A stretch of 64,000 nucleotides of DNA from Hyaloperonospora brassicae (lineage: Eukaryota; Oomycota; Peronosporomycetes; Peronosporales; Peronosporaceae). Location: contig CANTFL010001458.1 in assembly GCA_947650285.1 (NCBI GenBank), forward strand, positions 1-64,000. Direction: 5' to 3'. A program made the position numbers and the translations under genes. Shown here one piece after another: positions 22,293-43,476 of this stretch; positions within the stretch are counted from its first letter, which is position 1, and every line of letters begins with the position of its first letter. A model generated the notes under the pieces. That model had not been told where the DNA came from and did not search any database. It worked only from the letters and a program-made list of their open reading frames with translations.

Positions 22293-22331
22293 TGATCAAA
22301 CACTGACGCAACAGCAATAACGCATATCGCA

Positions 22332-22460: not shown

Positions 22461-22908
22461 ATTTGTTGGCCATGTTGCGCATACCATCCAGGGTAACTGT
22501 CGCTCAGTACGTCTCGAACTCGTTTGTTGGTGAGTGCAGAAGAAGTTGCTCGGCTGAGTCATCAGCTTCACGCTGCCCACCCCGAGCTTCCTACCCCCTC
22601 GGAAGCTGGCTGCACATTTCCGATACATGCACGCGAGACAATGAAGACCAGGCACTGTCTTGCGTGCATGTTTCGTAAGAGTTCTCACGTCGCAACACGT
22701 TTGCCTCGATACATCTACGAGCAGACTACCGCTTGTTTCGCTCGTGCGCTCGTAGCGTCCACAATCTGCTCCTTCGTAGTAGTCATTGTTGAAATTGATG
22801 TGTATTGAGGAACGATTAGCGACCAGCAATACCCTGTCTAGACGGATTTAATTATCTGGCGTCACGACCTTCAGCATCCGTCAATGCGACCGCACGAACG
22901 TCATTCCG

Positions 22909-23559: not shown

Positions 23560-23771
23560 AACCGCATCAGCCAGCGCTGAGCGGACTCGAGCTCGAACGA
23601 AATCCCGGGGATCGCCACTGGGTTGGTACGTCGAGGCTCAAAAAGGTGATTGCTCTTTGCAATCGGCTTGAGCAATCGCGTTGTGGCTCTCATCGCATAT
23701 CGTTGAGTCCTCTATCCGTCGTAGCCGCTCTAGCCAAATGGCGTGGGTTGGATCTCAATAAAGCGCCATAA

Positions 23772-23842
23772 ATTGGTGGCAGGTTCAAAAACGACCGCTT
23801 GAGTCTCGGCAGTATTACCACTTAGCTATAAAGCAATGAGTG
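23772..23842 (-). ncRNA. Degenerate tRNA-like fragment
   Basis: On the minus strand the sequence has an A-box-like tagctaagtgg, a stem with loop gactcaa, a weak B-box-like region and gccacca at the 3' side. The 5' acceptor strand and U33 are missing, so it is not a working tRNA. A tRNA-derived SINE remnant is more likely. Confidence 0.3.
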
Positions 23843-25021
23843 CTATATTCCATGCACGGTCAGGGGTCTTCAAAGTTTTAGTGAGAACACGCTGTGCGAT
23901 AGGCAGACGTCAGGAAGTCGATCAAGCGTACTCCAAGCGTTGATAACGACCCGCCACCGTCGCTGGGCTAGTGGAAAAACCCAGAAAACATGACTAGCAG
24001 GGGCAAAGCCACGTGGGCAGCGGCCGGGATTCGGACATGTCAGGTTGTTTGAAAATCGGTTCCAGAGTGGGAAACGGTATTGTACCTGCACGCTCCAACA
24101 ACTAAGTTGTCAGCAAGCTGCAGGAGATGTGTAGGCTCCCCGCAGCAGGACATTGGCTAGTCGTTGGAATTCTAAATGACTCTGATGCACCTAAAGAACA
24201 ACTTCATCGAGATGTGCGCTATCGATCGTCCTGCTTCACCTGTTTGTTGTCCTGTCATAGAGCACGCCCGAGAGCGCCTAGGACGCTGGTTATACACCAA
24301 GCTTGTTCGCACCCACTCACTCTCTAGCATTCTATAAATGCGTACTTAAGTCTGAGAGACGGATCGCTCGAGATATTTCCGCAGCACTCCCTTTGTCTTG
24401 AGACAGAGAGCGACACGAGGATTATTCCACCACCGTAGCTCTCCCATCGATTGCGATGTCATAGTAGATATCAACGATTGCCGATCATGAAAACCCATGC
24501 CCGAAAACGACTACCAGCTGACAGGTTACCTACACGCGCTTTGATACGAACGTGAAGCGAGTGGTAAAGAAAGGACATACATACGCTATCAGGATACAGA
24601 CGTGAACAGTGGAGAGATGTGCAAGGACGTCGAGCGTGTCGTCGCCAAGACTTATTACACCTTGATGAAGACGGAAAACAAACGGTGAAGGACGTCATGA
24701 CTACTACGAAGGACCAGATTGTGGACGCTACGAGCGTACGAGCGAAACAAGCGGTAGTCTGCTCGTAGATGTATCGAGGCAAACGTGTTGCGACGTGAGA
24801 ACTCTTACGAAACATGCACGCAAGATAGTGCCTGGTCTTCATTGTCTCGCGTGCATGGATCGGAAGTGTGCAGCCAGCTTCCGAGGGGGTAGGAAGCTCG
24901 GGGTGGGCAGCGTGAAGCTGATGGCTCAGCCGAGCAACTTCTTCTGCACTCACCAACAAACGAGTTCGAGACGTACTGAGCGACAGTTACCCTGGATGGT
25001 ATGCGCAACGTGGCCAACAAA

Positions 25022-25190
25022 TGTGCGCCAGCACTTGTATGATGCACCAGTCGTTGTACGATGTGCCAGACAATGTGTGATGCGTCAAGCCACTGTATGA
25101 TGCGCCAGCAATTGTATGATGCGCCAGACAATTTGTGTATGATGCGCCCAAGTGGCCATTGTAGGATGGGCCAGCCGTCGTACGATATGC
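25022..25190. repeat. 20-21 bp minisatellite in the right arm
   Basis: About eight degenerate units (type tgtatgatgcgccag), more than in the other arm. This accounts for most of the length difference between arms. Confidence 0.8.
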
Positions 25191-25219
25191 GTTATTGCTG
25201 TTGCGTCAGTGTTTGATCA

Positions 25220-25465
25220 CTAGATGCTACCGAACCATGGTAGTAGAGTTGACGGTTGTTGGCAAATGAAGCCAGGCGTGCCCGAGCCGGACACTTTCTT
25301 CGAATCAGGAAAAGATGCAACTCCGCTTTCAGCGTCACACACACCCTGGTGTCGTACATTGCATCGACCTTCCCATCTGGGAGCTGACACGGCGCATCTT
25401 GCAAGCACGCTGACTTGGCCGGTCACGAGCATCAATATACACGCAATCACCCAGGCGATCGTCAT
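25220..25465 (-). CDS. Small cysteine-containing secreted protein, copy B
   Basis: Encodes the same 81 residues as the frame at 22047-22292 in the opposite orientation, because it lies in the right arm of the inverted repeat. The signal peptide and four mature cysteines are unchanged. The two copies are divergently arranged about 3 kb apart and could make complementary transcripts if read-through occurs. Confidence 0.45.
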   Translation of the reverse strand: MTIAWVIACILMLVTGQVSVLARCAVSAPRWEGRCNVRHQGVCDAESGVASFPDSKKVSGSGTPGFICQQPSTLLPWFGSI

Positions 25466-26217
25466 CTTACGCTCGCTCGTACTAGAACGACTTGACTTGT
25501 CCCCTCATTTGTCACCTTCAGCCGCTATGTGACTTCACACCATCAGTTCGCAGCGGTTTCGCTTGGATCCTGACTGACCGTCCGGATGGGCAGACGCACG
25601 CGAACGAAACGGACAGATCGGGACATGGCATACTGTTGGCCGGTCGTCCACCGTGACTGGTCGAGGAATATCGAGATCTATGTACTGGACGATCACACAC
25701 CGGTGGAAGGTTGTTGTCAAATCTGCATTCGATATCACGCAGCACGATACCAGAACGAGCGTGAGCCACGCGTTCGTGGTGCTGGTGTATTCCACGTGCT
25801 GATCAATGGTTGACCCGCTTCCGCAAGTGGCCTTCGTGACTGAATCATGCCCCAGTGGGCGAGTCCTGCCCGTAAGACGAACGTAGCCGCGGCACATCAG
25901 AGCGTCGTCTTGTATCGGAGATGCACTTTGTATCAGAGATTAGGCTACGCAAGAGTCGAAGATGGCTGGACGGCTGCTTGCTAACAAAGAGAAGAAAAGC
26001 AGTTTATATCTCTTACCTCCTGGATTGCTTCGAGGATTAGGAGGTGAGACTCGCAACTTGCACCGAAATCTCAGATCCGCAACAGTCGCATCGCTTCGCC
26101 TGTCCCGATCGTATCCAACGAGTCGTTCGGAGTCAATAGGCATGCGCTTTTTCCCTTTGCTACGGATGCCGTGGTGCATTCGTGATCTATCATACCATGC
26201 CTTTTGATTCGACCAGT

Positions 26218-26869
26218 CCAAACGGTAAATTACCATGATCGTAATTTACCGTTTAGACTTATCAGTAAGCTATGAATGAGCTAATGGAATGTAGGACAGG
26301 CGTCGCTGTCAAATCCGTGTGCACAGTGACTTGAGGGTGCTGCAATTTACATGATCAGCTCTCCGGTGCATTCTTGATTCCAAGCAACTTGATATGCAAT
26401 ATCAAGAATGAAATACTGAATCAACAGTTAAGGTAATCACCAAAAAGACAGCAGCTTTCGTTTGTGTTGACCCCCTGCCGTTGGTAGAAATGAAACGTTT
26501 GCTGAGCGGATCATCAAATGAGTGCCGGAACGGCTGGCTGGGAGGTTCCATTCGGGCGCCAGACGTAAGTACTGCGCGTAGGTGCGACGATTGCCATTCA
26601 ATGCGTAGTGCAGGTGTATAAAAATACACATACTCGTTTCTCGGAGCACGTTGATCCACATTAGTACATGTATGATGTAGGTGCAAAGGATAGGCAGATC
26701 TTGACACATCACATAAATAACGCCACAACTTCAAATAAAAAGTTTAGCTGCAACAAAATGTCACTTACTAGTATATAGAATTCACCTGCGCACTAGATTG
26801 CGGCAGCGAAGTGTTGTGCATCAGATGAGTAGCTTCCGATAGGCTTCAAATGACATGCATCACTTGCAG
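26218..26869. other. Flank between inverted repeat and Gypsy element 1
   Basis: Holds the 14-bp hairpin at 26220-26254. A 110-codon minus-strand frame (26402-26734) is open but shows no signal peptide or domain and is not supported as a gene. Confidence 0.45.
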
Positions 26870-27261
26870 TGTAACGGGGCAGCCCGTTACATGAAATTGT
26901 CACTTTAAGGAAAGTGACAATAAAGAATATAAAGATGGATATTCTTTAAACAATATCACCAAAGTGGTGATATTGAAGGGTCGACCAAAGGGTCTGTTCA
27001 TTGGTTGATATCGTGATGATATCAACCCACCAATCGCCGCAAGACGCGCGCAATGAGTGGTGACGAGACGTCACCATACATCCAGTTATATTAATATAGT
27101 AAAAAGTAAGTCAAACGAAGAGACAGTAGTTTAAAGACTTAATTATATTAATATAACAGTTCTACTTTTACCTTACCTACGCTTCCTCGCTTGCCACGTG
27201 AACGTCCGTCGGGGCACCCAAATCCCTTGCGTTAAGTTACGCAAGGGTGTGCCCCGTTACA
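26870..27261 (+). repeat. 5' LTR of element 1
   Basis: 392 bp, begins tgtaacgggg and ends cccgttaca, so it has the TG...CA ends. It is built from a run of short inverted repeats, for example gtaacggg/cccgttac at 26871-26890, caatatcacc/ggtgatattg and ttgatatc/gatatcaa. Confidence 0.95.
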
Positions 27262-27263
27262 CC

Positions 27264-27275
27264 TGGTAGCACTTT
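27264..27275 (+). promoter_or_regulatory. Primer-binding site of element 1
   Basis: tggtagcacttt starts two bases after the 5' LTR. The tgg opening matches the CCA end of a primer tRNA. Element 2 has the same tggtagc start with the same two-base gap, which supports the call. The primer tRNA is not identified, though initiator Met is the usual one for this group. Confidence 0.65.
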
Positions 27276-27305
27276 GTAGTCCTTCCAAGGACCACATCAT
27301 CCAAC

Positions 27306-28460
27306 ATGAACATGTTGGATGAAGAAGACACCTTTCACGCCACGCGTGACGGATTTACCCATTTGAGTGACATCGAATGGGGTGCGGTAGAACGAATGAG
27401 TTCTACCGTAGGCGAACTCACCATTAGCGCCATGTTGGAGTCTCTAGACAGAGACCAACAACATGCCGCTATTGCCAAGTTCATTCAGAATGAACTTGCT
27501 CTCGAGAGGGAGAAAGAAGCCTTGCTTCACCAGCAAGGCTCTCAACAGGCCGAGCAGTTGAGAGAACTCGGTGCTCAACAGACGGAGCTGTTGAGACAGC
27601 AGCAATTCCATGCTGATGTGGGCGGGACGGCGCATGCGCGTCGTCCCGAAGTCATGAAAGTTGACATCTCCAAGTACAGTGGAGTCCCGGAAGACTCCCT
27701 ATCACTATGATTTGTCGAACTCGACAGAGCTCTAAGGGCTCGTCGCGTCGAAGATGAGCAAATGAAACTCACATTTGCTCAGACCCACTTGGCAGGGCGT
27801 GCCAAAACTTGGTCTCTGGGCCTCGAGAGTAGCGACCCAAATGTGTTTAGGTCGCTAGATGACTTCAAGTCCCGGCTCAGACAAACGTTTGAGCCGCCAC
27901 GTGCTGAGTTCAGGGCTCGTCCAGAGCTCCTGAAACTCAAGCAGGGTAAGCGTGATGTGCACGCTTACGCACAACATATACGACTCCTTGCGAGTAGTAT
28001 AACTACCAACCCAGTTCATGAACACACGTTGATTACGGTGTTCATGCAAGGGCTCGCAGAAGGGCCCGTCAGTAGCCACCTGTTCCGCCTTGAGCTGAAT
28101 ACGCTTGAAGAAGCGATATCAGCCGCGGAACAGGAAGACTTAAGCATGAGACAGGCTCATGCTAGCTCAAACTCTTACCGTCCACCGAGACGACAAGAGA
28201 TCGGAGGTCCAGAACCAATGGACCTCTGTTATGTTGAGAGCGAGAGACCTCGCTCTTCAAGCAACAAGCGATTGCAGAGGTGCAATCGCTGTCAGAAGTT
28301 AGGGCACTACGCATACGAGTGTAGTGCTCCACGCCCAGTACCAAACAGTACTGAGCGAAATGGACGACCTTTTGCCAGAAAGGGCAATGGGCGTGGGTCC
28401 AGCGCTGTTGCGAAGCCGCAACAGCGAGACGGACCATCAAAAAATGGTCGGGGTCAGTAG
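27306..28460 (+). pseudogene. gag: gag of element 1, one in-frame stop
   Basis: A single 385-codon frame runs from the ATG at 27306 to the TAG at 28458, interrupted only by a TGA at 27708-27710. The stop falls just before FVELDRALRAR, where related Gag proteins usually have Trp, so a TGG to TGA change is the simplest explanation. The N-terminal part has a Gln/Glu-rich coiled-coil-like segment. The middle is the retrotransposon capsid domain (TFAQTHLAGRAKTW onward). The C-terminal part has one CCHC zinc knuckle (CNRCQKLGHYAYEC) followed by a basic tail. Gag would form the particle and bind element RNA. The last codons overlap pol in the -1 frame. Confidence 0.9.
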
Positions 28461-28478
28461 GGGCGGAGCGCCCTACTG
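28439..28478 (+). promoter_or_regulatory. Gag-pol -1 ribosomal frameshift signal
   Basis: The heptamer a-aaa-aat (28439-28445) lies in the X-XXY-YYZ phase of gag. Nine bases later is a stem-loop: cagtaggg (28455-28462) pairs perfectly with ccctactg (28471-28478) around an 8-nt loop. The gag stop (28458) lies inside the stem. Reading shifted by -1 enters pol with no stop. Spacing and stem size fit the known mechanism. Confidence 0.7.
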
Positions 28479-31400
28479 ATCCAGCAACCTCAAGAGAATT
28501 TGCAAATCTCTTGACGAAAGTTGCTCCAGACACGCAGTCATTGTATGTCTCTGCACCTGGTGATGACGTTTCGCTCATCACCTTGAACTTGGAAGCGACA
28601 AATGATTTGTCGCTTCGTGCCCTAGTAGACTGTGGGGCGTCGAACAACTTTGTTCGTCGCCAGTCACTAGAGGGTCGTAGGCTCAAGTTCGTTGAGCGCG
28701 ACATTCCCCTCACAAGGATGACGGTGCGCCTTGCAACAGGCGCATCGATAACCGTTGAGAAACGTGTAGTAGGAATCTACTACACGTTAGAGGGCGAACA
28801 GTACGATGATGACTTCATCGTACTAGATCTGGATGACAAATTTGATGTCATCCTAGGATTACCTTGGCTCAGAAAGTACGAGCCAAGGGTGAGCTGGCAG
28901 CATCGATCCGTGAAGATGCCTGCTGCTTGTTCATCAGATGGCCATCTGATGAACGTCATGGAGCGTCCACAAGCGTGTGGATGTTCTGAGAGTGAGTGCT
29001 ATGGCCTCACTTGCGGTACGGTCGTTAGCACGACTGCAAAAGATCACAGTGTAGTTGATCACTACACTGTGGATCAAGCTCCCGGCGGCTGTACAGAAGT
29101 ACAGGCTGCGCCGAAGGTCCACCACTCGAATAAGTCGAGTGGACCGGGACATGGATGCATGCCTAGCGGGCAGCATCTTAGAAGAAAGAAACCTGTTGCC
29201 TCCAAGGGGCAACATGAAAATCCTAGGTCGACTGGAGAGTCGACCGTAGAGGATCGGTGCCTGAATAAGTTTGCACAGCCACAGTCGGAAGACGTCGAGG
29301 GAATAAGTCCCCACGTACTTGAGGAAGGAATTCCTCAAGAGTCGCTTGCTGAGGGATTAGGCCCTCAGCAACCTGTGGAAGCAAGTTCCCAGGAAGAAAC
29401 CGAGACGTTGAACGTCTTGGTCAATGACGGATCAAGCTTAGGCGCTTATACGCTTGATCTGATTGTGCCTCCGAAGTTGACTTCGGAGATAACTCAATTG
29501 CCAACGCTAGAACTGAAACGGTTCTTGCGTGATCTGCGTAGTGGCAAAGTCAAGCAGATCTGCATACTCTTCACAGAGGACGAGTATGTGACCGACATTC
29601 GGTCGGCCACAGTATTTGCTGAGAACGAACGGGTTCTCAGCAGCTCATCGATGGACGAAAGTGTCCTCGATGAGAAGACTCGGATTGAGCGATACGCGTC
29701 CCAATCCTGGGAGTCACTTCAGACAAATCCTTTGTATAAGGATTTGATCGAATTCAGGGATGTGTTCCCTGAATCCGCACCTTGCGAGTTGCCTAAGAAC
29801 AAAGGCACTCGACACGAGATCGAGCTCAAACCGGGCTCGAAATACTGTATCATGAAGCAGTGGCCACTGCCTCGTGAACACGTACTAGCGATCGACAAGT
29901 TCTTTGCCGATCGCTTAGCAGCGGGCGATGTGAGGGAATCAACATCCCTTCACAGCTCTCCGACCTTCTGTGTGCGAAAGGCCACAGGAGGGTGGCGGAT
30001 AGTGCACGCATTCAACAAATTGAATGCTGCAACGGTACCGGCTCAGACGCCAATACCGAGGAAGGACGTAATCATAGATGGTATGTCAAAGAGTACCATC
30101 TTTTCGTCCATGGATCTGATGGATGGATTCTATCAGATCCTGATGCGTGAACGGGACGTCCCGTTCACGGCAGCGAGTACCCCCAGCGGGATGCTGTGGG
30201 AGTGGCTAGTAATGCCACAGGGGCTGAGTAATGCCCCTGCAACATTCAACAGATGTGTCACAAATCTGTTGAGACCGGTGCGAGACTTCGCACCGAGTTA
30301 CTTCGACGATGTGTTCGTCCATAGCCGGGCTATGGACGGAAAGACGGACGTTGAAGTTCACAGAACTCACGTTCGTCAGGTTCTTCAACTTATGCGCAAG
30401 CATAAGTTGTACGCCAACCTCAAGAAGTGTATATTCGCGGCTAGCGAAATACCACTTCTTGGGTGCATCGTGGGTAAACACGGCGTACGCCCTGATCCCG
30501 AAAAGATCAAGGCGATCACTGACTGGCCAGTGCCAGTCGATGTCAAGGGACTAAGGAAGTTCCTTGGTCTTGCGGCGTACTTGCACAAGTACTCGCGCAA
30601 CTACGCCGAGATGACTGTTCATCTTTCTTGTCTGCTCAAGAAAAATGTCAAGTGGTCATGGAACGCTGAGTGCCAGCGTTCTTTTATAGGTATCAAGCAA
30701 AGCTTGATGCAATCGCCGATCTTGGCGATTGCAGATCAGGACAGACCATTTCATGTGGTCTGTGACGCCAGCGATCTTGCAATCGGCTGTGCGTTAATGC
30801 AGTTCGATGCAGATGGCGCGGAGCGCGTCATCTGTTATCAGTCGCGTCAGCTGCAAGCAGCTGAGCGTAATTACCCAGTGCATGACAAGGAACTCCTTGC
30901 CATGAAATACGCACTGGCTAAGTTTCGCGTCTATCTCCTCGGAGATAAATCGTTTGTTGTCTACACGGACCATGCGTCATTACGCACGGCCGTAAACAGC
31001 CCATACCTCTCGCAAAGAATGGCGAGGTGGCTGTCTTTCTTCGCGGAGTATAACTTCTCCGTGGAGTATAAACCGGGACGACTCAATGTCGTCGCGGATG
31101 CTCTTTCGCGCCGGCCCGATTTCGAGCCGAACGCACAATCCAACAGTGAGGATAACCCCACTGTTGCGACACTGTCAGTCAGTGTCCCGTCGTCAAGTTT
31201 ACTTGACGACGTACGAAAGGCATACGCGGAAGATAAGGATCTTCTGCGATTGATGGATCATCTGGTGAATCCATCCAGTAAATCATTGAGGGATTTACCG
31301 GCTTTGTACCGATCCTCATCGGATCGGTATAGTACACGCAACGGATTTCTGTACTATACAGCTGTTGCCGACGACACGCCTCGTGTCGTCGTACCCGCTC

Positions 31401-33356
31401 ATCATGATTTGCGTTTGCGCATCATGTATGAGTGTCACGATGCCCCAAGAAGCGGCCATCGTGGTAGAGAGAAGACTTACCTCACGGTAAGTCGCGACTT
31501 TTACTGGCCCCGCCAGTATCAGTTTGTTCGCAAGTACATACGTGCTTGCGAAGTTTGTCAACGGGTGAAGCCTAGTCCTTCATCCCGTGCGCCATTGCAG
31601 CCTCTGCCTGTTCCGACAGAGTGCTGGCAGTCCGTTTCAATGGACTTCGTCTTCGGGTTTCCCGAAGACGCTCACAAGAATAATGGTATTCTTGTGTTTG
31701 TTGACCGATTCAGCAAGATGGTCCATCTTGCTGCTGTCCCTGAGTCGATCAAGGCTCAAGGTTGTGCTCGTGTCTTTCTAGACACGGTCTTTAGACTCCA
31801 CGGGTTACCCCGTGAACTCGTATCCGACCGTGACCCTCGGTTCACGGCGGCATTTTGGCAAACCGTGTTCCGTTCTCTCGAAACACGATTGAACATGTCC
31901 ACTTCTGACCATCCAGAAACAGATGGTCAGACGGAACGTGCGAACCGTGTCCTCGAAGAGATCCTTCGAGGATATGTCCACTCGTTTCCGAGTTGGAGCG
32001 AATTCCTACCCATGGTGGAATTCGCCATCAATAATTCGGTGCATGCTTCAACACAGCACACACCGTTTTACGTGAATGGCCTACGCCATGCACGAGTGCC
32101 CACCCTTATAGAGTGTGACTCTTGGATAAGGGGGGGGAGGGACTCGCTCGAGCAAAACCCGTTTTGGCTCTTGCTCATCACGTGTCGACGCAAACGTCGT
32201 CACGTATGATGCCGATGTCGATCAAGTCGACATCGATGAAGAAGATCATCTCAATAATAGCTAAGACGATATTATTGACTCGGATGATGATGACGATGTT
32301 GGTATATTCAGCATCGCCAACGATTATGTCAGCGAGGAAGAAGACAACCTCGCTGAAGAAGAGAGCAATCTCTTAGCAGTGCGCACGAAGCGCACTGCCA
32401 GACAAAACAAAGAGTCAGCAGAGAACTTCCTGCTGACTCGAGAAGCGGTAGTCCTTTTCGTTCAGAACTCAATCGCAAATGCGGTGGACCGTCAGAAACG
32501 GAACGCAGACAAGAATGGAAGAGCAAATGTTCTTTCATTTAAGGTTAACGACCTAGTACTACTGTCAACGGTAAACCTACCTGGACATGCAGTCACTAGT
32601 GTCGGCAGTAGTAAACTACTGCCGAAATACATTGGGCCATTTCGAGTGTTGCATCGCAAGGGCAATGCTTACACACTCGAACTGCCACGTAGGATGCGCA
32701 CGCATCCTAAGTTTTACGTGGGGAGGCTTAGGTTGTACTGTCAGTACGAGCCTTCTTCTTCCGATGAAGATATCCCCCACGTTCAAGAACATCCATCAAG
32801 TTCTTGCGTTCGCGCTCCAGACGATCCGTCTGGTCGCGCAGATATGATACCTCGGTATTCAACCGAGTTATCTCTCCGCGAGCTGTCGCCAGCTCGCCGA
32901 AAAGGGAGCGGACATCCCGCTCGACCTGAAGCTGCGCCGTGGCATAATCGGCGCGATCCCTCGCCCGATCAGCCTCGTGATCCTTGCGGTTCTTCCGCAC
33001 GGTGTCGGTCAAAGCGTAGCGTCGGTCGCGCTCGTGCTTCAAGTCATCGCGCAATTCATCGATTGCGCGATCCATCTCGTAAGGGTCGAGATGGTGGGCC
33101 TGGGGTTCTGGAGGAGGTCTGTCCTCCTCCACCACATCATTTGGTGGATGCGCACGGTGACCAACTCTTTCTAGTGGAGCGTATCTTGAATCACCGTGAC
33201 GATTCAGGATCAAGGACGAGCTACCTCGTCCAGTGGCGGGGGTATCCACCCTCTTGGAACAGCTGGGAGCCCCGCTCTCAGCTGTTAATGGATGTTGAAG
33301 GTCTCGTCCGCCAGTATGACGAGACTTATCCGATGAGTCCTGTGGCCCATCTGTAA
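28445..33356 (+). pseudogene. pol: pol of element 1 (PR-RT-RH-IN-chromodomain), broken once or twice
   Basis: Entered by -1 frameshift from gag and open to about 32130. Domains in order: aspartic protease with DCGASN (Cys where Ser or Thr is usual), about 28610-28900; a Glu/Ser-rich linker; reverse transcriptase with YFDD at about 30299-30310 and the upstream SMDLMDGFYQI motif; RNase H (VCDASDLAIG, YTDHASLR), about 30735-31110; integrase with the H-H-C-C zinc-binding region (CHDAPRSGH, CEVCQR) and the core Asp in SMDFVFGF, Asp in VSDRDPRF and Glu in QTERANRVLEE, about 31390-32100. A run of eight G (32130-32137) shifts the frame, and a TAA follows at 32262. The frame then continues through a post-integrase region to a chromodomain (33162-33353, FLVERIL, YLVQWRGYPPSWNSWEP). 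The chromodomain would steer insertion into marked chromatin. Confidence 0.9.
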
Positions 33357-34332
33357 ACTCGCGCCCTAGGCGCATGTAGACGGATTGCAAGTTTGAAATC
33401 GAGTCACGCATCTCAGCCGAGATGTGTGCCCTTCCCCAGGGCTAATCTAGGGAATACACATCCTTATGTGCACGCTGCGAGTTGTCAACACAACTCGCAC
33501 AAGGGTCTCCCCATGTGAGGCAAGGAATGCCTGCCTCACTCGATAAACAATGCAACCGGTACCTAGCACCGGTTGGCGTTCGCCGTTCGAACCTGAGGCG
33601 TGTCGCCTCAAGTTTCTTGAGCCACCCTTCTCGTCCAAAATTCTTTATGTTTTGGACGAACGCGTTCCACGCAGCAAAAGCGAGGCCTTGTTACGCTTCT
33701 GGTTGCTGTTGTACCATCGATGTCTAAGGAAGACATCGAGATAAAAATCTTCTTCAGCGCGAAAGTTCTTCGCGCTATAACTCAAGCCGTGAAGCTCGGT
33801 TGCATCGAATAAGGGTATTCGATGGTGTTGGCCTGTCTCGTGAGACAGTCTATTGATAAGCCGTTCGGGCAAGCGGCACGGACTTAAGCTTTCCACGCTT
33901 CACAGTGGTACCCTTGTCGGTACCACGGCTCCCAGACTGACGACGGCTCGCGCCATCGTCATCACGCTCGTGCGAAGACGCACGAGCCGGCGGTGGTGTA
34001 GAATAGAACTCACCACCCTGATCATCGTCATCACTGCCGAACAGACTGTGATGCAAATCACGAGTCCGTTCGTTTGGCAGTGGTCTTGGCGAATACTGAG
34101 GCGTCTCCGGTGAGCGAGACGCCTCTGGAGCATTGCCCGAGTCAGACACGTCTGACTCGCCAGAGTAGATGACCTCTACATCAGGGTCATCGTGCGCACG
34201 CGGTGTGATACCGCGTGCACCTGCAGCACCTGTTGCTGCAGGCGAAGAAGGGGCGGCAGACGACGAATCGTCTGCCGCAGAGGCTGGCACAGCACCGGGC
34301 TGTGTGGGTCTTGAGTCACCTCGCATAGACAT
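32728..34332 (-). pseudogene. Antisense gene of element 1 (coiled-coil protein)
   Basis: On the strand opposite gag-pol, a coding-like stretch runs from the ATG at 34332 to a stop at 32728, about 535 codons in three pieces. 34332-33850: an Ala/Ser/Pro-rich and then acidic region. 33896-33447, frame shifted and with a stop at 33645: a charged segment including EEDFYLDVFLRHRWYNSNQ. 33411-32728: a long coiled coil (ELRDDLKHERDRRYAL, LERERKNLMDVLERGGYL). The 3' part is antisense to the pol linker and chromodomain (up to 33356). Element 2 has the same arrangement at 35985-37344. The function is unknown. Antisense reading frames at this site are described in some plant Gypsy lineages (Tat/Ogre type). 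Whether oomycete ones are described I cannot check. Confidence 0.7.
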
Positions 34333-34451
34333 GTTAACTATGCGAGGTCAAGCGGAAAGTGAATGGAACGGACCCAACAAGTGCTCCCTGTCCCAATGGT
34401 GGCCAACGGGTGGCCTCCATATTTTCGATAGTCACACGGTGACTATCAGTT

Positions 34452-34464
34452 AAGGGGGGGGTGA
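34452..34464 (+). promoter_or_regulatory. Polypurine tract of element 1
   Basis: aaggggggggtga directly precedes the 3' LTR at 34465, the expected place for the primer of plus-strand DNA synthesis. Confidence 0.75.
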
Positions 34465-34856
34465 TGTAACGGGGCAGCCCGTTACATGAAATTGTCACTT
34501 TAAGGAAAGTGTCAATAAAGAATATAAAGATGGATATTCTTTAAACAATATCACCAAAGTGGTGATATTGAAGGGTCGACCAAAGGGTCTGTTCATTGGT
34601 TGATATCGTGATGATATCAACCCACCAATCGCCGCAAGACGCGCGCAATGAGTGGTGACGAGACGTCACCATACATCCAGTTATATTAATATAGTAAAAA
34701 GTAAGTCAAACGAAGAGACAGTAGTTTAAAGACTTGATTATATTAATATAACAGTTCTACTTTTACCTTACCTACGCTTCCTCGCTTGCCACGTGTACGT
34801 GCGTCGGGGCACCCAAAACCCTTGCGTAAAGTTACGCAAGGGTATGCCTCGTTACA
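34465..34856 (+). repeat. 3' LTR of element 1
   Basis: 392 bp, same ends as the 5' LTR, with 8 base differences by direct comparison: one in the gtgacaata segment, one in acttaatt and six in the last 60 bases. Confidence 0.95.
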
Positions 34857-35402
34857 ATATACATTTACGTTCCACGAGGAACTTGAGGTTTATAATAACT
34901 GTGGACTAAGCGCCTTGTGATGTCAGTGCAGGTTAATTCGATATTACGTCGATATACGCACCGCTGTCACGAGTAGCCGTCGATTTAGTAGCGGATAACT
35001 GATGGAAAGATCCCATAGTGAGAATCGAAATGCGAGTGCAATATAGCTGCAAAAGGGGGCGTGCAAGCCGTGTGACTCACTGCACAGTCGATGAGTTAAT
35101 TATACTGAGCGTGTGATGGATCACAGCACTGGAAATTAGAGCAAAATTTTAGCCTATTGGCACGTCTTATAATTTCTCTACATTTGCTATAATACGCAGT
35201 GCATCACCGAAACTGTCGAAAATTACGCCATTATGTCCCATCAGCGCGTACTTCGGTAATTGACTAGAATTACCACGTTCCTTCAAATCGTAGAGACACT
35301 GGATGTGGCTAACAGCTGCAACGTATTATTTGCATTTCTTTGCAAAAACATTGCACCTGTTCTGCATCCTTTCTTGGAGCTGCGCTGATCGATCAAAGTA
35401 AA
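34857..35402. other. Spacer between the two Gypsy elements
   Basis: About 0.5 kb of DNA that matches neither element. No reading frame or repeat recognised. Confidence 0.5.
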
Positions 35403-35878
35403 TGCAGCGGAGCTACACAGCTCCTTAAGTCAGAGGAAGACTTAACGCTCTTACGAGCAGCTTAGATACGAGAACCCGACTCCTGAGAGTCACACAAGCT
35501 TAAGAGCTTCCGTTCCCTGTTTCAAAGGGGACCAAATGATTCAAATGAATCACAGCACATAGTACTCAAAGACAAGCTACCTTCACAGGCGTTGCTTAGT
35601 CCTTACGACCAAGACGCCCCGTAGGGCACGTGTCAATTACTGATCAAAAGGTGAACTGAACTTATTTTCTTCTTTAAACCTAAAAAACACCTTAGAACAA
35701 CGTAATTAACCTGTCCTGAACAAAATCTCTTAAAAGATCTCGCAATCAATGGATGACAGACATCACTCTTCAACAATCGATGCACTTACTGTGTTCTAAT
35801 ATCACTTGACAGGGGACCCCGTCTCTTTTGTGCACCAGACCTATTGTCGACTATCAGCCGACGTGTAACCCCGTTACA
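35403..35878 (-). repeat. 3' LTR of element 2
   Basis: On the minus strand it starts tgtaacggggttacacgtcg. It matches 42944-43476 along its length, with blocks such as agctacacagctccttaag and cgctcttacgagca shared. Confidence 0.85.
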
Positions 35879-35888
35879 CCCTCCCCTA
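35879..35888 (-). promoter_or_regulatory. Polypurine tract of element 2
   Basis: On the minus strand taggggaggg lies directly before the 3' LTR. Confidence 0.6.
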
Positions 35889-35984
35889 CCAGACTGACGT
35901 CACCACAAAACGTCAATCACATTCTTTCCTCGAAGAGGTCGATGTGTGTGAGCTTTACCTCACAGTTGCCAAACACAAAACATT

Positions 35985-37344
35985 ATGGCATCGCCACCTA
36001 ACGAGTCTCGGAATCTTGTCCCCTATCTCGACTTTAATGAGGATGTGGACCATGGTAGCAATACCACTGCCCCTGGAGATGACGGGATATCTCCCACTTT
36101 GCTGTATATGAGGCTCGACCTCTAAGAGCACCGAACCCGTTCGTTAAACGTGGTGAAACGACCGCGCCATTGGCGCAGCATCATACAACAGATGCAGATG
36201 AGAACATCATCAAGGACCCGCTCGACGAGCAACAGGAGTTAATTCTTCAGCGAGAGGAGAGGGATCGCCGTCGTGCTCATACCCAGAAGGTTATTCAAGC
36301 CGGAGTAGTTACGTGTTTTCAGCACCAGACGTGAAGCATCGTCTCCGGCAAACGGAAGGCTGAAGCCTCGCAACATAGGCAATTGCACCAGAGACTAAGT
36401 CTACAGAAGACATTGGGTTCCGCAAGTTTCTACATGAGAGATATCTCGGACCGTTCTTGACCACGCAAGGTCAGTACCTTACGCACCTTAAAAGCTTATC
36501 TCGTTGTTTTTCGGTTCGACCGATACAGGTCGTGACCATCTTGTTGTTCACTGGCGAAATGCTCTAGGAGGAGGACAATCAGTTCATTCGTTGGGTGTGC
36601 CGCAAGCGTGATCTTAGCAGTGTTTAAGCGCTGCGGGCCGGCGCCGATGTGGCTTACATTCGTCTAGAACGAAAGCTCCGGTTCGAATACGCCAAGCTCA
36701 AGGCCAGAGACTAGTTGCGTACACGTACGCATGATGCTCCGGCTACGCCGGTAACCGCGGGTTCCAGCCCCAATATTGCGGAACAACCCGCTGCCTCCAC
36801 CACTATTGGTGAGAAGCGCTCTCGGTCGAGGGATGACCCCTGCCGCCATGTTCAAAAACAATAACGGCATATGGGCAATCCTGCCGAAGGCGTATCTTAA
36901 ACTCCCACGCGTTCTCCGAATCCGGGTACCCTCGCCACTTCAACAGATACTGGTATTGACCCTGACGACGACGTCGTTTCAAGAGTCGCTCCACATGGAA
37001 CTGGCGGTTCACTTGCTCATTGAGCAGCGTCGGAGGTGGTCGGTATATCGAAGGAGGAGCGTAAGAAGATGCACCTCGAGTTGAGTGGTATTCGTGAGAC
37101 ATTGATCGAGATCCATAGTGCTTTTGACGCGATGCGAGCAAGTGTCCAGGTGTTGGAGTTGAGCCAAGCCCGTGTTTAGGCATTAAAGTTGCGCCAAGCC
37201 CTGATGGAGGCTCATCTTGACCCTTTGATACGATTTCAGCAACCGATGGCAAGGCCTACCTATGCGGCGCAAGTGCCTCCGAGTTCACATAGGACGGATC
37301 CTGATACGGCTGAAGCAAGCCAACTTAGAACACCGGATGCTTAA
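35985..37344 (+). pseudogene. Antisense gene of element 2 (coiled-coil protein)
   Basis: Plus-strand coding-like sequence opposite the 3' end of a minus-strand element. It opens at the ATG at 35985 (MASPPNESRNLVPYLDF), continues as an acidic region with a stop at 36123, then in other frames through a Glu/Arg-rich helix (LILQREERDRRRAHTQKV), a segment with FRKFLHERYLGPFL, and EDNQFIRWVCRKRD. From about 36571 to the stop at 37342 one frame holds coiled-coil-like sequence (RLERKLRFEYAKLKARD; ELSGIRETLIEIHSAF), with stops near 36628, 36712 and about 37171, and a clean end. It overlaps the chromodomain and post-integrase part of pol in antisense. Its position, length class and layout match the antisense frame of element 1, though the sequences differ. 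Confidence 0.65.
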
Positions 37345-40300
37345 GCAGTTTGCGCAAAAGGTTGAACATATACGCAAGTCCCTTCTTAGAGACAACCGTG
37401 AATGGACCGATGAAGCGCGGACGCAACTTTGTCTTGAAGATGGTATGCACTAAATTTGTAGGTAGGTTTTTAGCATTGAGTAGAACTTGGTCTCCGACCT
37501 TAAAACGCTCAATACAAGCTCTGACTTTATCATCATCTTGTTCCTTCTGCTTGTCTTGGCTATCAGCCAGTGCATCACGTACGTGTCGTAAAACATTCAA
37601 TCGCGTTACAAGAAAGTCGCCTACCTGTTTGTGAACAATAGCAGGGCTGATATCAGCAAGCCGATTGGCCATCTTTTCCCCAACAAGCCCTTAACCACGT
37701 AGTGAAAGCGTTTACGGAATGCGAGGGTGGGTGAGACCGTTCACGTAGAACGGGGTAAAGACTGTAGAGGCGTTAACAGCGTTGTTGAACGAAAAATTAA
37801 CAACAGGAAGCATCGAACTCCAACGTTTTGGTATATTCACGCAAACGCTGCGTGATATATCACCGATAACGCGATTTACTCGCTCGGTTTAACCAACGGT
37901 CTGCGGATGATCCGCTGTGGACATGTCCAAACGTGTGCCGATCACCTTGAAGATGGACTTACAAAACTTCCCAGTGAAGCGGGGGTCTCGGTCAGAGACA
38001 ATTGCCATAGGAAAACCGTGTAGTCGAAACACTAGATCAATAAACAGCGTATCTGTACCTTCACCATCAACGATATCCGGCACCGCCGCTAAATAATCTA
38101 TCTTGCTCAAACGGTCAACAAAGACCACAATACCCGTAGTGCCGTACAAAACTTTCGGTATACCGAACAGGAATTACATGCCTATGAACTCTCTACACCC
38201 TGAGGGTACAGGCAAACTAGCCAGCGTCGCGGCCGCGTGAGCTGAGGGTTTCATCCGTTGACACGTTTCACACATACGCACATATGTGCTTACCCATTTG
38301 TAAAGCTGAGGCCACCCTAATAACATTGGCTCACAGAGCTAAAGGTCTTTTCAAGACCGAGATGACCACTCAACGCAGCATCATGTGCCTCATAGAGGAT
38401 CCGATACTTCAATTCCTCATCATGAGGGACAAATATGCGAGGGGTATCCTCCACATCCGTTCTATAGCACAACAGGCCCTGACCAATGGAATATCGATGT
38501 AACCTCGCACGTAACCGTGCCGACAATTTAATGCCTGAGTCGTTAAACTCCTCGCTCCCTAGAGCGCGAAGCAGCGCTACACAGTCTCGATCTTTGGTAT
38601 ATGTCGAACGAATGAGGTCAGTGACCAATGATGACAGAGTCATTACATGAGCAAACTCATATTCTGGTCGCCAAATAACGCACCAGCCAAAGAATTCTGC
38701 TTGCCGGCTTCTTGTACTTCATCTAAAAGTTGTATTCTGCAAAAAAAGGAAAGCCAACAAGCCATTCGCTGAGAGAGGTGTGGCGATTGGGTCGCAGTGC
38801 GTAATGGCGCGTGATCGGTGTACTCCACAAAAGGCTTCGAGCCAAGCAGATGAACTGTCATTTGCCTAAAGCGTACTTCATTGCAAGTAGCTCTGTGTCA
38901 TGATCTGTATTGTTCTTTTCAGCTTCTTTCAGCTGTCGGGACTCAAACGCGATGACGCGTTCCCATCCATCATTAAATGCTTGTAATATATCACTGCCTA
39001 TGGCGAAGTCAGATGCATCACAGACGACACTGAAGGACGATCAGGATCGGGCAAAGCCAAGTTTGGCGCATAAAGAAGACTTATTTTAACATTCATAAAG
39101 GCTTCATGCTCGGTGTTAGCCCAGCACCACTCCAGGTTCTTTTTAAGGAGATTGGATAATGGTTGAGCCATACCGCATAGTTCGCACTGTATTTGTGCAA
39201 GTAATTGGCAAGGCCAAGCCTCTTACTTGAGTCCTTTTGGTTCTTAGGAATCATCCAATCGTCCATGGTTTCTACCTTAGCGGGATCCGCTCCAAGGCCA
39301 CGTTTTCCAATGAATCACCCTGGAAAAGGGAATCTATTCTGCACCAAAGATGCACTTAAATGCGTTGGCATACAACTTGTTTGTGCGCATGTACTCGAAA
39401 ACTGCTTGTAAATGGTCGATGTGATCATCTACACCAGAACGGCCGTTTAACGCACGACTGTGGACGAAGATGTCATCAAAGCACGTCTGTGCATATCCTC
39501 TGTGAGGTCTGAACAATTGTGTCACAAGACGATTGAATTTAGCCGGGGCATTTGATAACCCGTGCGGCATAACAAGCCACTCTCAGAGATTTTTGCCGTG
39601 TGACCCCTCAGACCGCCCGGGGGTGATCTGCGAGTACCGCGGCTCGGTTTTAACTCTCCAGGGGCCCACATTCCTCATTACACTATGGGGCTTTTCGGCT
39701 AGTAGGGCCTCCAGCCCACCCAACTATCACACACCCTTCGGTGAAGGTTGGCAGGGCGGCCACCCATTTGGTGGTTGCTCGTCATACTTTGTAAGCCTAT
39801 CGCCGGCGCCCTGTAATCAAACCCCCCTCCGGGTTATCGATCCAGATACCTCCCCAAGCCACTCTCAGAGCATACCGCTCGGAGTGACGACCGCTGTCAG
39901 CCGAATATCGCTTTCTCGCATTCAGCTGGTAATAACCATTGACCAAGTCGATCGCACTCTACATTGTACATCCCACCATATTGCTCTGAAGAACATCCTT
40001 CCTTGAAATTGGTGTCTAAGCCGGGATGGTGGCTGCATTAAGCTTATTGTAAGCATGAACAATGCGCCACTTCCCATTGGGTTATTTGACACGAAATGTC
40101 GGTGTGGAACGAGGAGAATTGCTCTCAAGAACCATACCAGCCGCGTGATTTGCACGAATGAAGTCGTCAATGACGTCACACTGTTCCTTCGTTTAGGGCC
40201 CCTGTCGTGTTACGCAGCATTAAGTTCCAGGAACTAAGTCAATTTCGTGACGCACACTTCATCAGTAGGTAAGACGGACGGTGGGTTGTTGCACACCACG

Positions 40301-41917
40301 TCCTAAAATTCCTTTACCAAAGGATAGAAAGGATCAAGAGAATCCTTAAGAATCGACGATCCACTACGGGTATCTAATGCCGCCTTTGTGTCCTCAAGGA
40401 CAGACTCGTCCAATATCGAGGATGAGCTCAACTCAATATTCGGCCGAATGACCACTAACTCAAATAATTTTCCTGCCTGTAAGGCTTGGCTAAATTCACC
40501 GTCAGACATTTCGTATAGTTTGAAGAGAGCTTCCATGGACGGAAGAGGCGCGAGACGTACTTTAACTTCAATCTGTCCAGTCAACCCATTGACAAGTGCA
40601 TATAGTGTATTATTACTTTTATCACTTCGTGGCTTCTTAATCGCTGGACGCGTAACACTTGCCACCCTACGCTGAGATTGAATCCTTAAAGAAACCTTAC
40701 GCCTTCTTGAGGCCGAGACAGTAGGGTCCCCGTGGTTGCTATTCATCTTAGCACGCTCTATACGAGAGCTTATGTCTTGAACGACATCTGGTGAAGTGTT
40801 ACGTAACTCGAACACTTTACCCAGTGGATTTACACGTACCACTTCACGTACATCATCCGGGCCTAGCCCTGAACACTCTGGCTTCTAGCCATCAATGTCA
40901 TTACCGACATTCAGCGAGGTGCCATCTCGGCCGCCCTCACTCAGTGCAATTTACACGTACCACCACAAGTTAAGCATCCGGTCCTAGCCCTGAACGCTCT
41001 GGCTTCTCGCCATATATGTCATTACCGACATTCAGTGAGGTGCCATCTCGGCCTCCCTCACTCGGTAGAATTTCACGTGCCACCCCGCTCACATCAGAGG
41101 AATGACATTCTTGACGTCTTGGCCCTAGGCCAACCATGCCTGCAGTATGCAGTGACTCATCATCACAACGAGTATCACTCAACGGATTATAGCTCTCTTC
41201 ACATACGGTAAAAGAGCTCCGCTCAACATGGATGTCATTAATATTGGATTTAATTAACTCGGACATACCAATGTCCAGCACATTGACATCTTCCGTCAAT
41301 AGCTCGCGCAAACAGAGCTTATGGCGCCTATTAAAGGTGGGTTCATGACTCTCCAAAGCTTCTCTAGAAACATTGCGCGTGGCGCCTAAGGTCTTGGACC
41401 TCCAATCAATCCATGGCTCATGGCGTTCAAGCCAAGCCATACCCAGGATGAGATCGTATCTCGAATCCAAATCGAGGACAAGATAGCGTTCAATGCTGTC
41501 AAAGCCTAAAAACGTCACACACAAGTTCAACGGAACTTTGAGCACCGTGACGCGACTACCAGTCGCTAAACGAACGGTGATTGAATCACCTTCATGCGCT
41601 TTGAGCGCTTCAGCGTATCGCTGACTTCTCTCAAGGAAACGACGTCGAGCTTGATAGCATGATGCTCCGGGGTCGATTAAGATCGACCCATGCTTTTCAA
41701 AGCCGTTAATCTTCGCCTCAATGACTAACAAGCCAGGCTTGTATCCACGCTCTGTGCTGGCGTGAACAGAGTTCACTAAGGCTAAGCTCTGTTTAATTAT
41801 ACCTCGTAAAGAAGTAGCAGAACTCAGTTCTATACCAGTAGGGCGCCCCGCACCTTCTGGGCGTCGACGTTTACCCGTGCCATACCACTTTCCAGGTTGG
41901 GGCTGGGGCTTTAACAA
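36803..41917 (-). pseudogene. pol: pol of element 2, heavily broken
   Basis: Starts in the -1 frame relative to gag, overlapping it by a few codons at 41911-41917. The protease region (about 41700-41350) has IDPGAS, so the residue after the catalytic Asp is Pro, probably an inactivating change. The linker frame is 40303-40842. Reverse transcriptase appears as MPHGLSNAPAKFNRL and CFDDIFVHSRA (39334-39570) and is split by the insertion at 39589-39854. RNase H shows EYTDHAPLR (38643-38861). Integrase shows the zinc-binding HDAALSGH region (38317-38643) and core VSDRDPRF, TADHPQTVG (37889-38149). A post-integrase part (37325-37672) and a chromodomain (FHVERLLKRR, LLKWRGYPDSENAWE; about 36870-37110) follow. 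It cannot make a working polyprotein. Confidence 0.85.
39589..39854 (-). mobile_element. SINE-like insertion with 16-bp target duplication
   Basis: 266 bp inserted in the reverse-transcriptase region of element 2, flanked by exact copies of caagccactctcagag (39573-39588 and 39855-39870). Removing the insert and one repeat copy rejoins the RT reading at the EWLVMPHG motif. On the minus strand the insert ends cggcaaaaat, a short A-rich tail, and has a weak B-box-like ggtttgattac near its start. Target duplication size and tail fit LINE-driven retroposition. A tRNA origin is uncertain. Confidence 0.75.
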
Positions 41918-42850
41918 AAATGAGTCGGTTTTTGCTTACGCAAAGGACAATAGGGACGCAAGTGTTTAGCGCTTTCGCATATATAACAGCGTTTCACTTC
42001 TTGACGTTTCTCTGCAAACGGAAGCTCCGCTTCACCTTCATCTTCAGCATGGCTGAGATCTATCGGTTCTGACTTACAGTAAGCCGAGGTGGTCGCAGAG
42101 GTTGCCCTCGCATAGCTTGCGTTGTACTCATTCCAACCAAGTCTGGCCGACTTAAAGTTGTGCTCAGCATTTTGAGCGATGCTCACATCCTCTTCAAAAG
42201 TCGAGGGATGTACCCGAAACACCTTAGTCCTGGCAACGCCAGTGCGAAGACCTTCCATGAAGACAGTCACATAGACTGTCTCATGGAGAGGGTCAGACTG
42301 CATAGCAGCCATCAGAGTTCTCAACTCTTGGACATAGTCCGTTAGCTCATTCTTACCCTGACCGGTAGACAAGAAGCGTGAGAGCGTGCGAAAGGCCTGG
42401 TTGGGCGGCGAGAAAACTAGCAATAGGTCTGACTGAAGTGAATGCCATGTGGAAACGCTAAGTCGACCGACATGCCACACATCAGAGCCCACTCTCTAGC
42501 TCTTCCGTCGAGCTTGGAGATGGCCAGCGAGACCCGCTGGTACTCCAGTGAGATAAGGCCAGAGCTCATGGCCACCTCAATTTCTCGGATCTAGAGGGTC
42601 AGGTTTCCCCCTCCTTACCGGAGAAATGTTTAACGTCCACCCTAAGGGGGCGAGGTTTGGACTCTTCATCTGGCAACGCAACTTCCGTGTTGGCATAGCC
42701 GACGCTATTTGGTTTTAAACCTTCCCTAACAGGTCCTTCCATACTGCACGAAGGTCTCGACTCGTGCATTGAGCACATCAGGACCTTGTGCAGCTAGAAT
42801 CTCCACATATTCTGGGCCTACGGCCGCGGTCATCTTATCAAGCGCGACCT
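41911..42850 (-). pseudogene. gag: gag of element 2
   Basis: The best frame is 42492-41911 (193 codons) and holds the end of the capsid domain (ELTDYVQELRTLMAAMQ, VYVTVFMEGLRTG) and one CCHC knuckle (CYICESAKHLRPYC). Upstream, capsid-like sequence (VSLAISKLDGRAREWAL) continues in another frame above 42492, so an indel lies near there. The start was not resolved. The frame ends at 41911, overlapping pol by a few codons in the -1 direction, but no canonical slippery heptamer is seen at the overlap. Confidence 0.75.
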
Positions 42851-42929
42851 TTTACGCCTCATAGAGGAGTGTATATTGCTCCATCCTTACAGAGGATCAG
42901 TCGTTACCGACTCAGTTGTAGATTGACTA

Positions 42930-42941
42930 CTATTGCTACCA
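42930..42941 (-). promoter_or_regulatory. Primer-binding site of element 2
   Basis: On the minus strand tggtagcaatag begins two bases after the 5' LTR, as in element 1. Confidence 0.6.
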
Positions 42942-42943
42942 AG

Positions 42944-43476
42944 TGTAGCAAAGCTACACAGCTCCTTAAGTTAGAGGAAGATTTAGCGCTCTTACGAGCA
43001 ATTGTGGTTCTACGAACCCGACTCAAAGATTCAACAGCTCCGAGAGCTAAACGGGTCGTTCAAAGAACCCGACTCAAAGAGCCAACAGGCTCAAAGAGCT
43101 TACGGTTCCTGTTCCAGGGGACCAAATAATTGAAAGAATTAAACGCACTAAGTTTACAAGGAGTAGCTGCCTTAACAAGGCGTTGCTACTTCCTTACGAT
43201 CGCAAGAAGCCTCAGAGAGGCACGTGTCTTGTGTTGATCAAAATGGTAACTGAATTTTATATCTTCTTTTAACCTAAAGAACACCTTAGAACAAAGTATA
43301 TAACCTACTCACTTATGTCCAAAATAAACCTTTTGAAAGATCTCGTAATCAATTGTTGACAGACATCAGTCTTCAACAATTGATACTTGTGTTCTAATAT
43401 TAATTCAAAGAAGATCCCATCCCTTGTGTGTACCACACCTATTGTCGACTACCAGTCGACGTGTAATCTCGTTTCA
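42944..43476 (-). repeat. 5' LTR of element 2
   Basis: 533 bp. On the minus strand it begins tgaaacgagattacacgtcg and ends gctaca. It carries an extra tandem-like segment (cgaacccgactcaaagat and related, about 43014-43084) that makes it longer than the 3' LTR. Confidence 0.85.

What the first reader, a model, noticed from the sequence alone, without database searches (positions are those of the whole stretch)
26870..34856. A retrotransposon written almost entirely in short hairpins
Element 1 has near-perfect short inverted repeats about every 40 nt in the stretches I read, in LTR, gag, pol and the antisense region. Stems checked base by base: 26871-26890 (8 bp), 27946-27968 (9), 28143-28163 (8), 28455-28478 (8), 28592-28616 (11, loop 3), 28761-28788 (11), 28800-28824 (10), 28929-28954 (13, no loop), 29045-29071 (11), 33046-33071 (10), 33110-33130 (8). 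By simple arithmetic, a perfect 8-bp stem with a loop of up to about 10 nt should occur by chance about once per 6.5 kb. The protein still reads as an ordinary Gypsy polyprotein, so the pattern must be carried largely by codon choice. Possible causes are quasi-palindrome correction or template switching during reverse transcription, a selected genome-scale RNA structure (packaging, protection from RNA silencing), or both. I know of no described element with this property but could not search.
Basis: partly seen in the sequence, partly recalled or inferred. Interest (0 to 1): 0.9.

Follow-up and report, generated by a model that had tools for sequence, protein, structure and literature searches.

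The report
Retrotransposon family tiled with hairpins
A jumping gene in what looks like a downy mildew genome is packed almost end to end with short mirror-image stretches that can fold into tiny hairpins, even inside its protein genes, and related copies suggest that the pairing is kept by selection; what it is for is not known.

Summary
Confirmed, and broader than reported. Window 26870-34856 is a Ty3/Gypsy LTR retrotransposon with 96 non-overlapping perfect stems (>=8 bp, loop <=12); dinucleotide shuffles average 1.6, and in the pol frame 43 stand against 1.15 in protein-preserving codon shuffles. Hairpins (stems peaking at 9-11 bp, loops at 3-5) lie about every 37 nt through LTRs, gag, pol and an antisense-gene region. 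The 49 other loci of the family that I fetched and six diverged subfamily copies have them. Two other Gypsy families of the genome have them at other positions and with other stem lengths (4-5 bp with a cut-off; 8-9 bp); one Copia fragment has none. In the window family, sites paired in independent relatives carry 3-5 times fewer inherited variants, third codon positions included. Double changes keep pairing in 33 of 44 cases, against 32 of 85 in controls. This fits selection on pairing better than copying of one arm from the other. G-U is not favoured over A-C, so the constraint looks alike on both strands. Best guess: local folding of both polarities that blunts RNA silencing. That function is inferred, not shown.

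The parts
26870..34856 (+). Whole Ty3/Gypsy LTR retrotransposon tiled with hairpins (96 perfect stems >=8 bp, loop <=12)
26870..27261 (+). 5' LTR, 392 bp, 6 stems >=8 bp; begins TGTAACGGGG; 8 differences from the 3' LTR
27263..27278 (+). Probable primer-binding site (TGGTAGCA...), lying between hairpins; tRNA match not tested
   Evidence: position read; label from general knowledge
27297..27322 (+). 12-bp hairpin (loop 2) that contains the first ATG of the gag frame (27306)
27306..28460 (+). gag frame (PF03732 Retrotrans_gag; Ty3 capsid; zinc-knuckle matches below cut-off); in-frame stop at 27708-27710 in this copy; 14 stems
28355..32209 (+). pol frame: protease, RT, RNase H, integrase; 43 stems when counted alone
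28929..28954 (+). Example: perfect 26-nt palindrome (13 bp, no loop) inside pol
32265..33356 (+). Integrase tail (SH3_Tf2-1) and chromodomain frame, 10 stems
32728..33441 (-). Antisense ORF 1 (237 aa), open in 21 of 30 other copies when read on window coordinates
33850..34347 (-). Antisense ORF 2 (165 aa); with ORF 1 part of one 571-aa antisense frame in subfamily copy L053
34451..34461 (+). Probable polypurine tract (AAGGGGGGGG), lying between hairpins
   Evidence: position read; label from general knowledge
34465..34856 (+). 3' LTR, 392 bp, 5 stems >=8 bp starting inside it
35400..43100 (-). Second, decayed Gypsy element (bounds approximate): family with 4-5 bp hairpins; 2 stems >=8 bp, 47 stems >=6 bp vs 18.9 in shuffles

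Best explanation
The element belongs to a Ty3/Gypsy lineage whose members keep their sequence tiled with short, strictly Watson-Crick hairpins of a family-specific stem length. SHOWN here: the hairpins are real, dense, laid down mainly through synonymous positions, and in the window family conserved in place by fewer inherited changes and by compensating changes. INFERRED: selection on pairing, not automatic copying of one arm from the other, maintains them. INFERRED: since G-U mismatches are no better tolerated than A-C mismatches, and the element has an antisense gene, folding of both polarities matters. GUESSED: the benefit is that sense and antisense transcripts, and small RNAs cut from them, fold on themselves and so anneal poorly to each other and to silencing guides, while the stems stay too short to be cut as double-stranded RNA.
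For: Excess over dinucleotide and protein-preserving shuffles; predicted folding far above codon shuffles on both strands (z -23.5 and -20.9; Copia 0.0 and -0.3). Pairs chosen in independent relatives: shared (inherited) variants 0.014-0.019 per paired site vs 0.060 unpaired, third codon positions 0.023-0.036 vs 0.122, while single-copy variants are 0.089-0.106 vs 0.109. Double changes keep pairing in 33 of 44 vs 32 of 85 and 222 of 604 in controls that start paired. Inherited stem variants one-sided in 39 of 40; arms even. Strand symmetry: GU:AC 11:9, 10:19, 24:23, 36:34 for group-B pairs. Antisense gene with homologues. Small RNAs map along Gypsy elements in both orientations in P. infestans (PMC3522703, passages). 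PBS and PPT lie between hairpins.
Against: No RNA, small-RNA or probing data. Structure can itself attract silencing (PMC10760457, abstract). A cut-off at 5 bp in the second family is not explained by avoiding Dicer. In that family the apparent constraint vanishes once ascertainment is removed: 17 of 610 paired vs 59 of 1541 unpaired sites differ, and against L062 paired sites differ more (5 of 198 vs 23 of 1720). At third codon positions single-copy variants are also somewhat rarer at paired sites (0.092-0.121 vs 0.154, P 0.004-0.2). Hairpins are not more evenly spread than chance except in L058. The antisense gene could be incidental.
Confidence: 0.4

Rival explanations
1. Mutational origin: during reverse transcription the new strand folds back and copies itself, turning imperfect hairpins into perfect ones; each family's polymerase has its own patch length, hence its own stem length. 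Purifying selection only removes changes that spoil the protein.
For: Explains family-specific stem lengths with sharp ends, strict Watson-Crick pairing without G-U preference, independent positions in different families and saturation of LTRs and genes alike. A conversion process is what the authors propose for hairworm palindromes (PMC6649704, passages).
Against: Copying predicts double changes, yet 39 of 40 inherited stem variants are one-sided; no arm bias; double changes 26:7 transitions vs 286:264 at unpaired sites, P 0.0035; paired sites change 3-5 times less, not equally.
Confidence: 0.25
2. Packaging or compaction: Gag or its nucleocapsid part recognises stem-loops of a given length along the genomic RNA, and each family's Gag sets the length.
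For: Hairpins run through the whole transcribed unit about one per 37 nt, with a family-specific length; Gag carries weak zinc-knuckle matches.
Against: It concerns sense RNA, so G-U should be tolerated more than A-C; pooled 45:51. No loop motif was apparent, by eye only.
Confidence: 0.15
3. DNA-level role: inverted repeats act as DNA, as cruciforms, in single-stranded cDNA, or as protein-binding palindromes.
For: Strand symmetry of tolerated mismatches; the LTRs are tiled too.
Against: Sequences of the hairpins all differ, so no sequence-specific site; stems of 5 bp in one family are poor cruciforms (general knowledge).
Confidence: 0.12
4. Chance, composition or assembly artefact.
For: Only that raw reads were not available, and a slight excess also in the window flanks.
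Against: 96 vs 1.6 in shuffles; present in 49 other loci and six diverged copies; absent from the Copia fragment.
Confidence: 0.01

Closest known systems
Coding palindromes of Nematomorpha (hairworm) mitochondrial genes (PMC6649704, PMC10380579; passages and one introduction read)
   Same: Perfect inverted repeats inside functional protein genes, bias against the third-to-third codon phase, sharp perfect arms.
   Different: There few and long (up to 284 bp), in mitochondrial DNA, free in some genes, and evolving in concert between arms; here dense, short, with a family-specific length, in LTRs as well as genes, with inherited variants one-sided.
Genome-scale ordered RNA structure of some RNA viruses (recalled; one search listing)
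   Same: Pervasive folding carried by synonymous sites along a whole genome.
   Different: Here local hairpins of near-constant length, strict Watson-Crick pairing and no G-U preference, in a retrotransposon.
Palindromic elements in Rickettsia genes (mentioned in PMC6649704, passages)
   Same: Palindromes tolerated inside coding sequence.
   Different: Those are inserted elements; here the hairpins differ from each other and belong to the gene's own sequence.
Chronos and other oomycete Gypsy groups (PMC5348765, passages)
   Same: Oomycete Gypsy elements; Chronos has a chromodomain.
   Different: Chronos has a second, archaeal-type RNase H, not matched here; the words hairpin, inverted and antisense do not occur in that paper's held text.

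Membership tests
Ty3/Gypsy LTR retrotransposon | Two LTRs around gag and pol | tested here: met
   LTRs 392 bp, 8 differences; gag and pol
Ty3/Gypsy LTR retrotransposon | Domain order protease, RT, RNase H, integrase; Ty3-type gag | tested here: met
   Pfam positions in pol; Ty3_capsid over its cut-off
Ty3/Gypsy LTR retrotransposon | Target-site duplication | tested here: not met
   Flanks TTGCAG and ATATAC differ; seen by eye in this one copy, other copies not examined; common in old or recombined copies
Chronos group of oomycete Gypsy | Chromodomain | tested here: met
   PF00385
Chronos group of oomycete Gypsy | Second (archaeal-type) RNase H | tested here: not met
   No second RNase H family matched at E<=0.01 in the five frames scanned; this copy is broken, so a lost domain is possible. 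Not filed as Chronos
Coding palindromes of the hairworm kind | Perfect inverted repeats in coding sequence with bias against the third-to-third phase | tested here: met
Coding palindromes of the hairworm kind | Concerted evolution of the two arms at short time scale | tested here: not met
   1 of 40 inherited stem variants changes both arms
Genome-scale ordered RNA structure | Folding energy far below that of coding-preserving shuffles | tested here: met
   z -23.5 sense, -20.9 antisense
Genome-scale ordered RNA structure | G-U pairs accepted as in RNA helices | tested here: not met
   45 GU vs 51 AC; 36 vs 34
Genome-scale ordered RNA structure | Structure forms in cells | not testable with these tools
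   needs chemical probing

The most novel reading that the evidence does not exclude
A lineage of oomycete Gypsy elements carries a second, selected layer of information: nearly end-to-end hairpins whose stem length is set by a family-specific ruler (about 5, 8-9 or 9-11 bp) and read in strict Watson-Crick form on both polarities. Each family evolved its own set independently without loss of the protein. I found no mobile element or virus described as organised this way.
Probability: 0.4. Interest if true: 0.95.

Novelty: new variant of a known kind. Interest (0 to 1): 0.86.

Why it matters
It is a natural coding sequence that satisfies protein function and very dense local self-complementarity at once, in at least 40 copies in one genome, with an untiled Copia element beside it as a control. 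That makes an old question, why and how genomes acquire pervasive structure, directly testable: silencing escape, packaging and template switching predict different things that small-RNA reads, probing and new insertions would settle. If the stem-length cut-off reflects a protein ruler, finding that protein would reveal a new rule of retroelement biology. It also warns annotators: three Hyaloperonospora arabidopsidis proteins named RxLR effector candidates are relatives of the element's antisense ORF.

Tried and rejected
Relatives outside this genome: two scans of viral contigs and one of bacterial/archaeal genome contigs found none. No DNA of other oomycetes was within reach, so tiling in other species rests only on a protein-level hint; its first version used a control that did not start from paired bases and was replaced. 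The slid controls had the same flaw and were replaced. The contrast of inherited variants chose its pairs from the family itself; one search repeats it with pairs chosen in relatives and confirms it for the window family, but the same correction removes the apparent fourfold constraint in the second Gypsy family. The lower divergence of paired sites between groups (third positions 0.096 vs 0.232; 3' LTR and antisense stretch) is inflated, up to about twofold, by choosing pairs in the window family; against L056 the 5' LTR even shows the reverse (0.333 paired, 0.252 unpaired). Rfam: nothing over threshold in 26500-35200. Hairpin positions shared between families: 2 of 54 vs 1-4 in shifted controls (L057), 4 of 54 vs 0-4 (L058). 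Strict periodicity: not found; spacing is loose (24-44 nt, then about double), as in saturated packing. Even spacing: only L058 is more even than random placement (P 0.0035); six other sequences are not. A shared loop motif: looked for by eye only.

Dropped before counts: columns with fewer than 15 rows, 150 of 1118 pairs had no clear state and 27 were not paired in the reference. L003 and L040 are parts of one element; leaving L003 out did not change the counts. In one search insertions relative to the window were lost.
Full report
WHAT WAS CLAIMED AND WHETHER IT IS THERE. All 11 listed stems exist (two are one pair longer than stated). A full count gives 96 non-overlapping perfect stems of at least 8 bp with loops up to 12, against 1.6 on average in 50 dinucleotide shuffles (maximum 5). 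In the pol frame 43 are found against 1.15 in 100 codon shuffles that keep the protein and codon usage. The other ~56 kb of the window hold 25; the 26 kb upstream and 21 kb downstream show only a slight excess over shuffles (12 vs 4.5 and 9 vs 4.0). Allowing mismatches, 168 hairpins cover 3,948 of 7,987 nt, with median centre spacing 37.5 nt, stems peaking at 9-11 bp and loops at 3-5.

WHAT THE ELEMENT IS. Two 392-bp LTRs with 8 differences enclose gag, pol (protease, RT, RNase H, integrase) and a chromodomain: an ordinary Ty3/Gypsy polyprotein, broken in this copy by an in-frame stop in gag and by changes of frame. Over the RT/RNase H region pol relatives are 89% identical in Peronospora effusa and about 65-72% in listed Phytophthora and Globisporangium proteins (the best 120 of 3800 are listed). 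An antisense gene lies near the 3' end: its two parts have 31 and 49 homologues, the best named ones 95% and 77% identical, in Hyaloperonospora brassicae. Antisense ORF 1 is open in 21 of 30 other copies on window coordinates, and subfamily copy L053 has one 571-aa antisense frame. Third positions of the antisense frame diverge most in ORF 2 and in the overlap with the chromodomain frame for all six subfamily copies, but not in the 85-nt tail 33357-33441.

IT IS A PROPERTY OF THE FAMILY. Forty places in the genome match a 321-nt probe at 97-100% over nearly its whole length (only 40 of 1718 candidates were scored). L002-L050, 95-98% identical to the window element, carry 11.4-14.2 stems >=8 bp per kb. 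Six further copies, 78-91% identical overall, carry 43-63 stems in 7.8-8.0 kb. Of the window's 139 hairpins (score >=7), 61-94 have a hairpin centre within 2 columns in each of these six, against 0-1 in a shifted control.

OTHER FAMILIES HAVE IT, WITH OTHER STEM LENGTHS. A search for the RT active-site motif led to other Gypsy families. In L057, from the family of the decayed element at 35400-43100 (50% amino-acid identity to the window pol), stems of exactly 5 bp with loops 3-6 number 58 against 10.0 in codon shuffles; 6 bp 8 against 2.8; 7 bp 1 against 0.6. L061 and L062, close relatives of L057, show 55 and 50 five-bp stems, then 5 and 6 of six bp. In L058 (58% identity) the excess peaks at 8-9 bp: 10 vs 0.3 and 4 vs 0.1. 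A Copia fragment (L059) has none: 3 vs 4.8 at 5 bp. Hairpin positions are not clearly shared between families. So each family read here has its own set and its own stem-length class. These comparators are 2.0-3.0 kb pieces of one to three copies each.

HOW IT FITS THE PROTEIN. Window-family stem pairs in pol fall mostly in the two codon phases that leave a third position free in two of three pairs (299 and 277); 105 of 681 fall in the phase that ties third to third. That phase is also lowest in L057 (13 of 62) and L058 (9 of 35). The pattern was laid on the protein largely by synonymous change.

SELECTION OR SELF-COPYING? Variants seen in one copy (mainly decay after insertion) are about as frequent at paired as at unpaired sites (0.089-0.106 vs 0.109); variants shared by two or more copies (inherited through replication) are not. 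With pairs chosen in independent relatives, shared variants occur at 0.014-0.019 per paired site against 0.060 per unpaired site, and at third codon positions at 0.023-0.036 against 0.122; at third positions single-copy variants are also somewhat rarer (0.092-0.121 vs 0.154). Between window-group and group-B copies 33 of 44 double changes keep Watson-Crick pairing; controls that start paired keep it in 32 of 85 (slid) and 222 of 604 (unpaired sites). Self-copying predicts double changes, an arm bias and the normal mutation spectrum. Instead 39 of 40 inherited stem variants are one-sided, the arms are even, and pairing-keeping double changes are 26 transitions to 7 transversions against 286:264 at unpaired sites. 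I conclude that pairing is selected; a slow copying process that helped to create the hairpins is not excluded.

WHICH STRAND? If sense RNA folding were the target, G-U should be tolerated more than A-C. It is not: 11:9 and 10:19 and 24:23, pooled 45:51, far from an assumed 3:1; pairs of group B give 36:34. Predicted folding is similarly strong on both strands. Stems end sharply, pairing beyond them being near chance. The constraint therefore looks strand-symmetric: both RNA polarities, RNA plus cDNA, or DNA.

MECHANISM. I commit, at about 0.4, to two-strand local folding that blunts RNA silencing: the element has an antisense gene, and P. infestans makes small RNAs along Gypsy elements in both orientations (PMC3522703, passages). 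The main difficulty is that structure can itself attract silencing (PMC10760457, abstract and start of introduction); a length cap could be the compromise for 9-11 bp stems but does not explain 5 bp. Rivals: self-copying by the reverse transcriptase, packaging, a DNA-level role.

AGAINST KNOWN KINDS. Hairworm mitochondrial coding palindromes share the phase bias and the perfection but are few, long and evolve in concert (PMC6649704: passages; PMC10380579: outline, introduction, passages). Genome-scale ordered RNA structure shares the pervasiveness but not the locality, the cut-off or the strand symmetry (recalled; listing only). Ten paper searches listed no paper on a hairpin-tiled retrotransposon; I saw at most 40 titles per search, and subscription papers and preprints are mostly outside that library.

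LIMITS. One genome; DNA of other oomycetes out of reach; constraint in the 5-bp family not established (17 of 610 paired vs 59 of 1541 unpaired sites differ between L057 and L061); no RNA data. A protein-level test in 120 homologues gives 68 of 115 double changes keeping pairing vs 217 of 652 in controls at 60-70% identity (23 proteins), 10 of 18 vs 37 of 108 at >=70% (7), 339 of 695 vs 1588 of 4434 at 50-60% (87), and no excess below 50% (11 of 31 vs 91 of 226; 3 proteins). This suggests the tiling in relatives, but the rows are not independent.

Noticed in passing
32728-33441 and 33850-34347, minus strand: Antisense ORFs of the element; three of the 31 homologues of the first are named RxLR effector candidate protein in Hyaloperonospora arabidopsidis, so those annotations may be antisense genes of retrotransposons.
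   Followed up: partly
21291-26221: Long inverted repeat: arms of 1053 nt (98% complementary) and 434 nt (97%) around a centre of about 1.9 kb, ending some 650 bp before the element; perhaps a transposon with long inverted ends.
   Followed up: no
1132-1252: Ten copies of a 12-bp repeat inside a proline/serine/threonine-rich ORF on the minus strand.
   Followed up: no
40828-41084: 121-bp tandem duplication within the second Gypsy element.
   Followed up: no
26864-26869 and 34857-34862: No target-site duplication visible at the ends of the element.
   Followed up: no
L057, 3 kb; L040, 5.6 kb: Gaps between successive hairpins mostly stay under about 20 nt, with a second cluster near 45-55 nt; the packing looks saturated. 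Many longer gaps hold shorter or longer-looped stems.
   Followed up: partly
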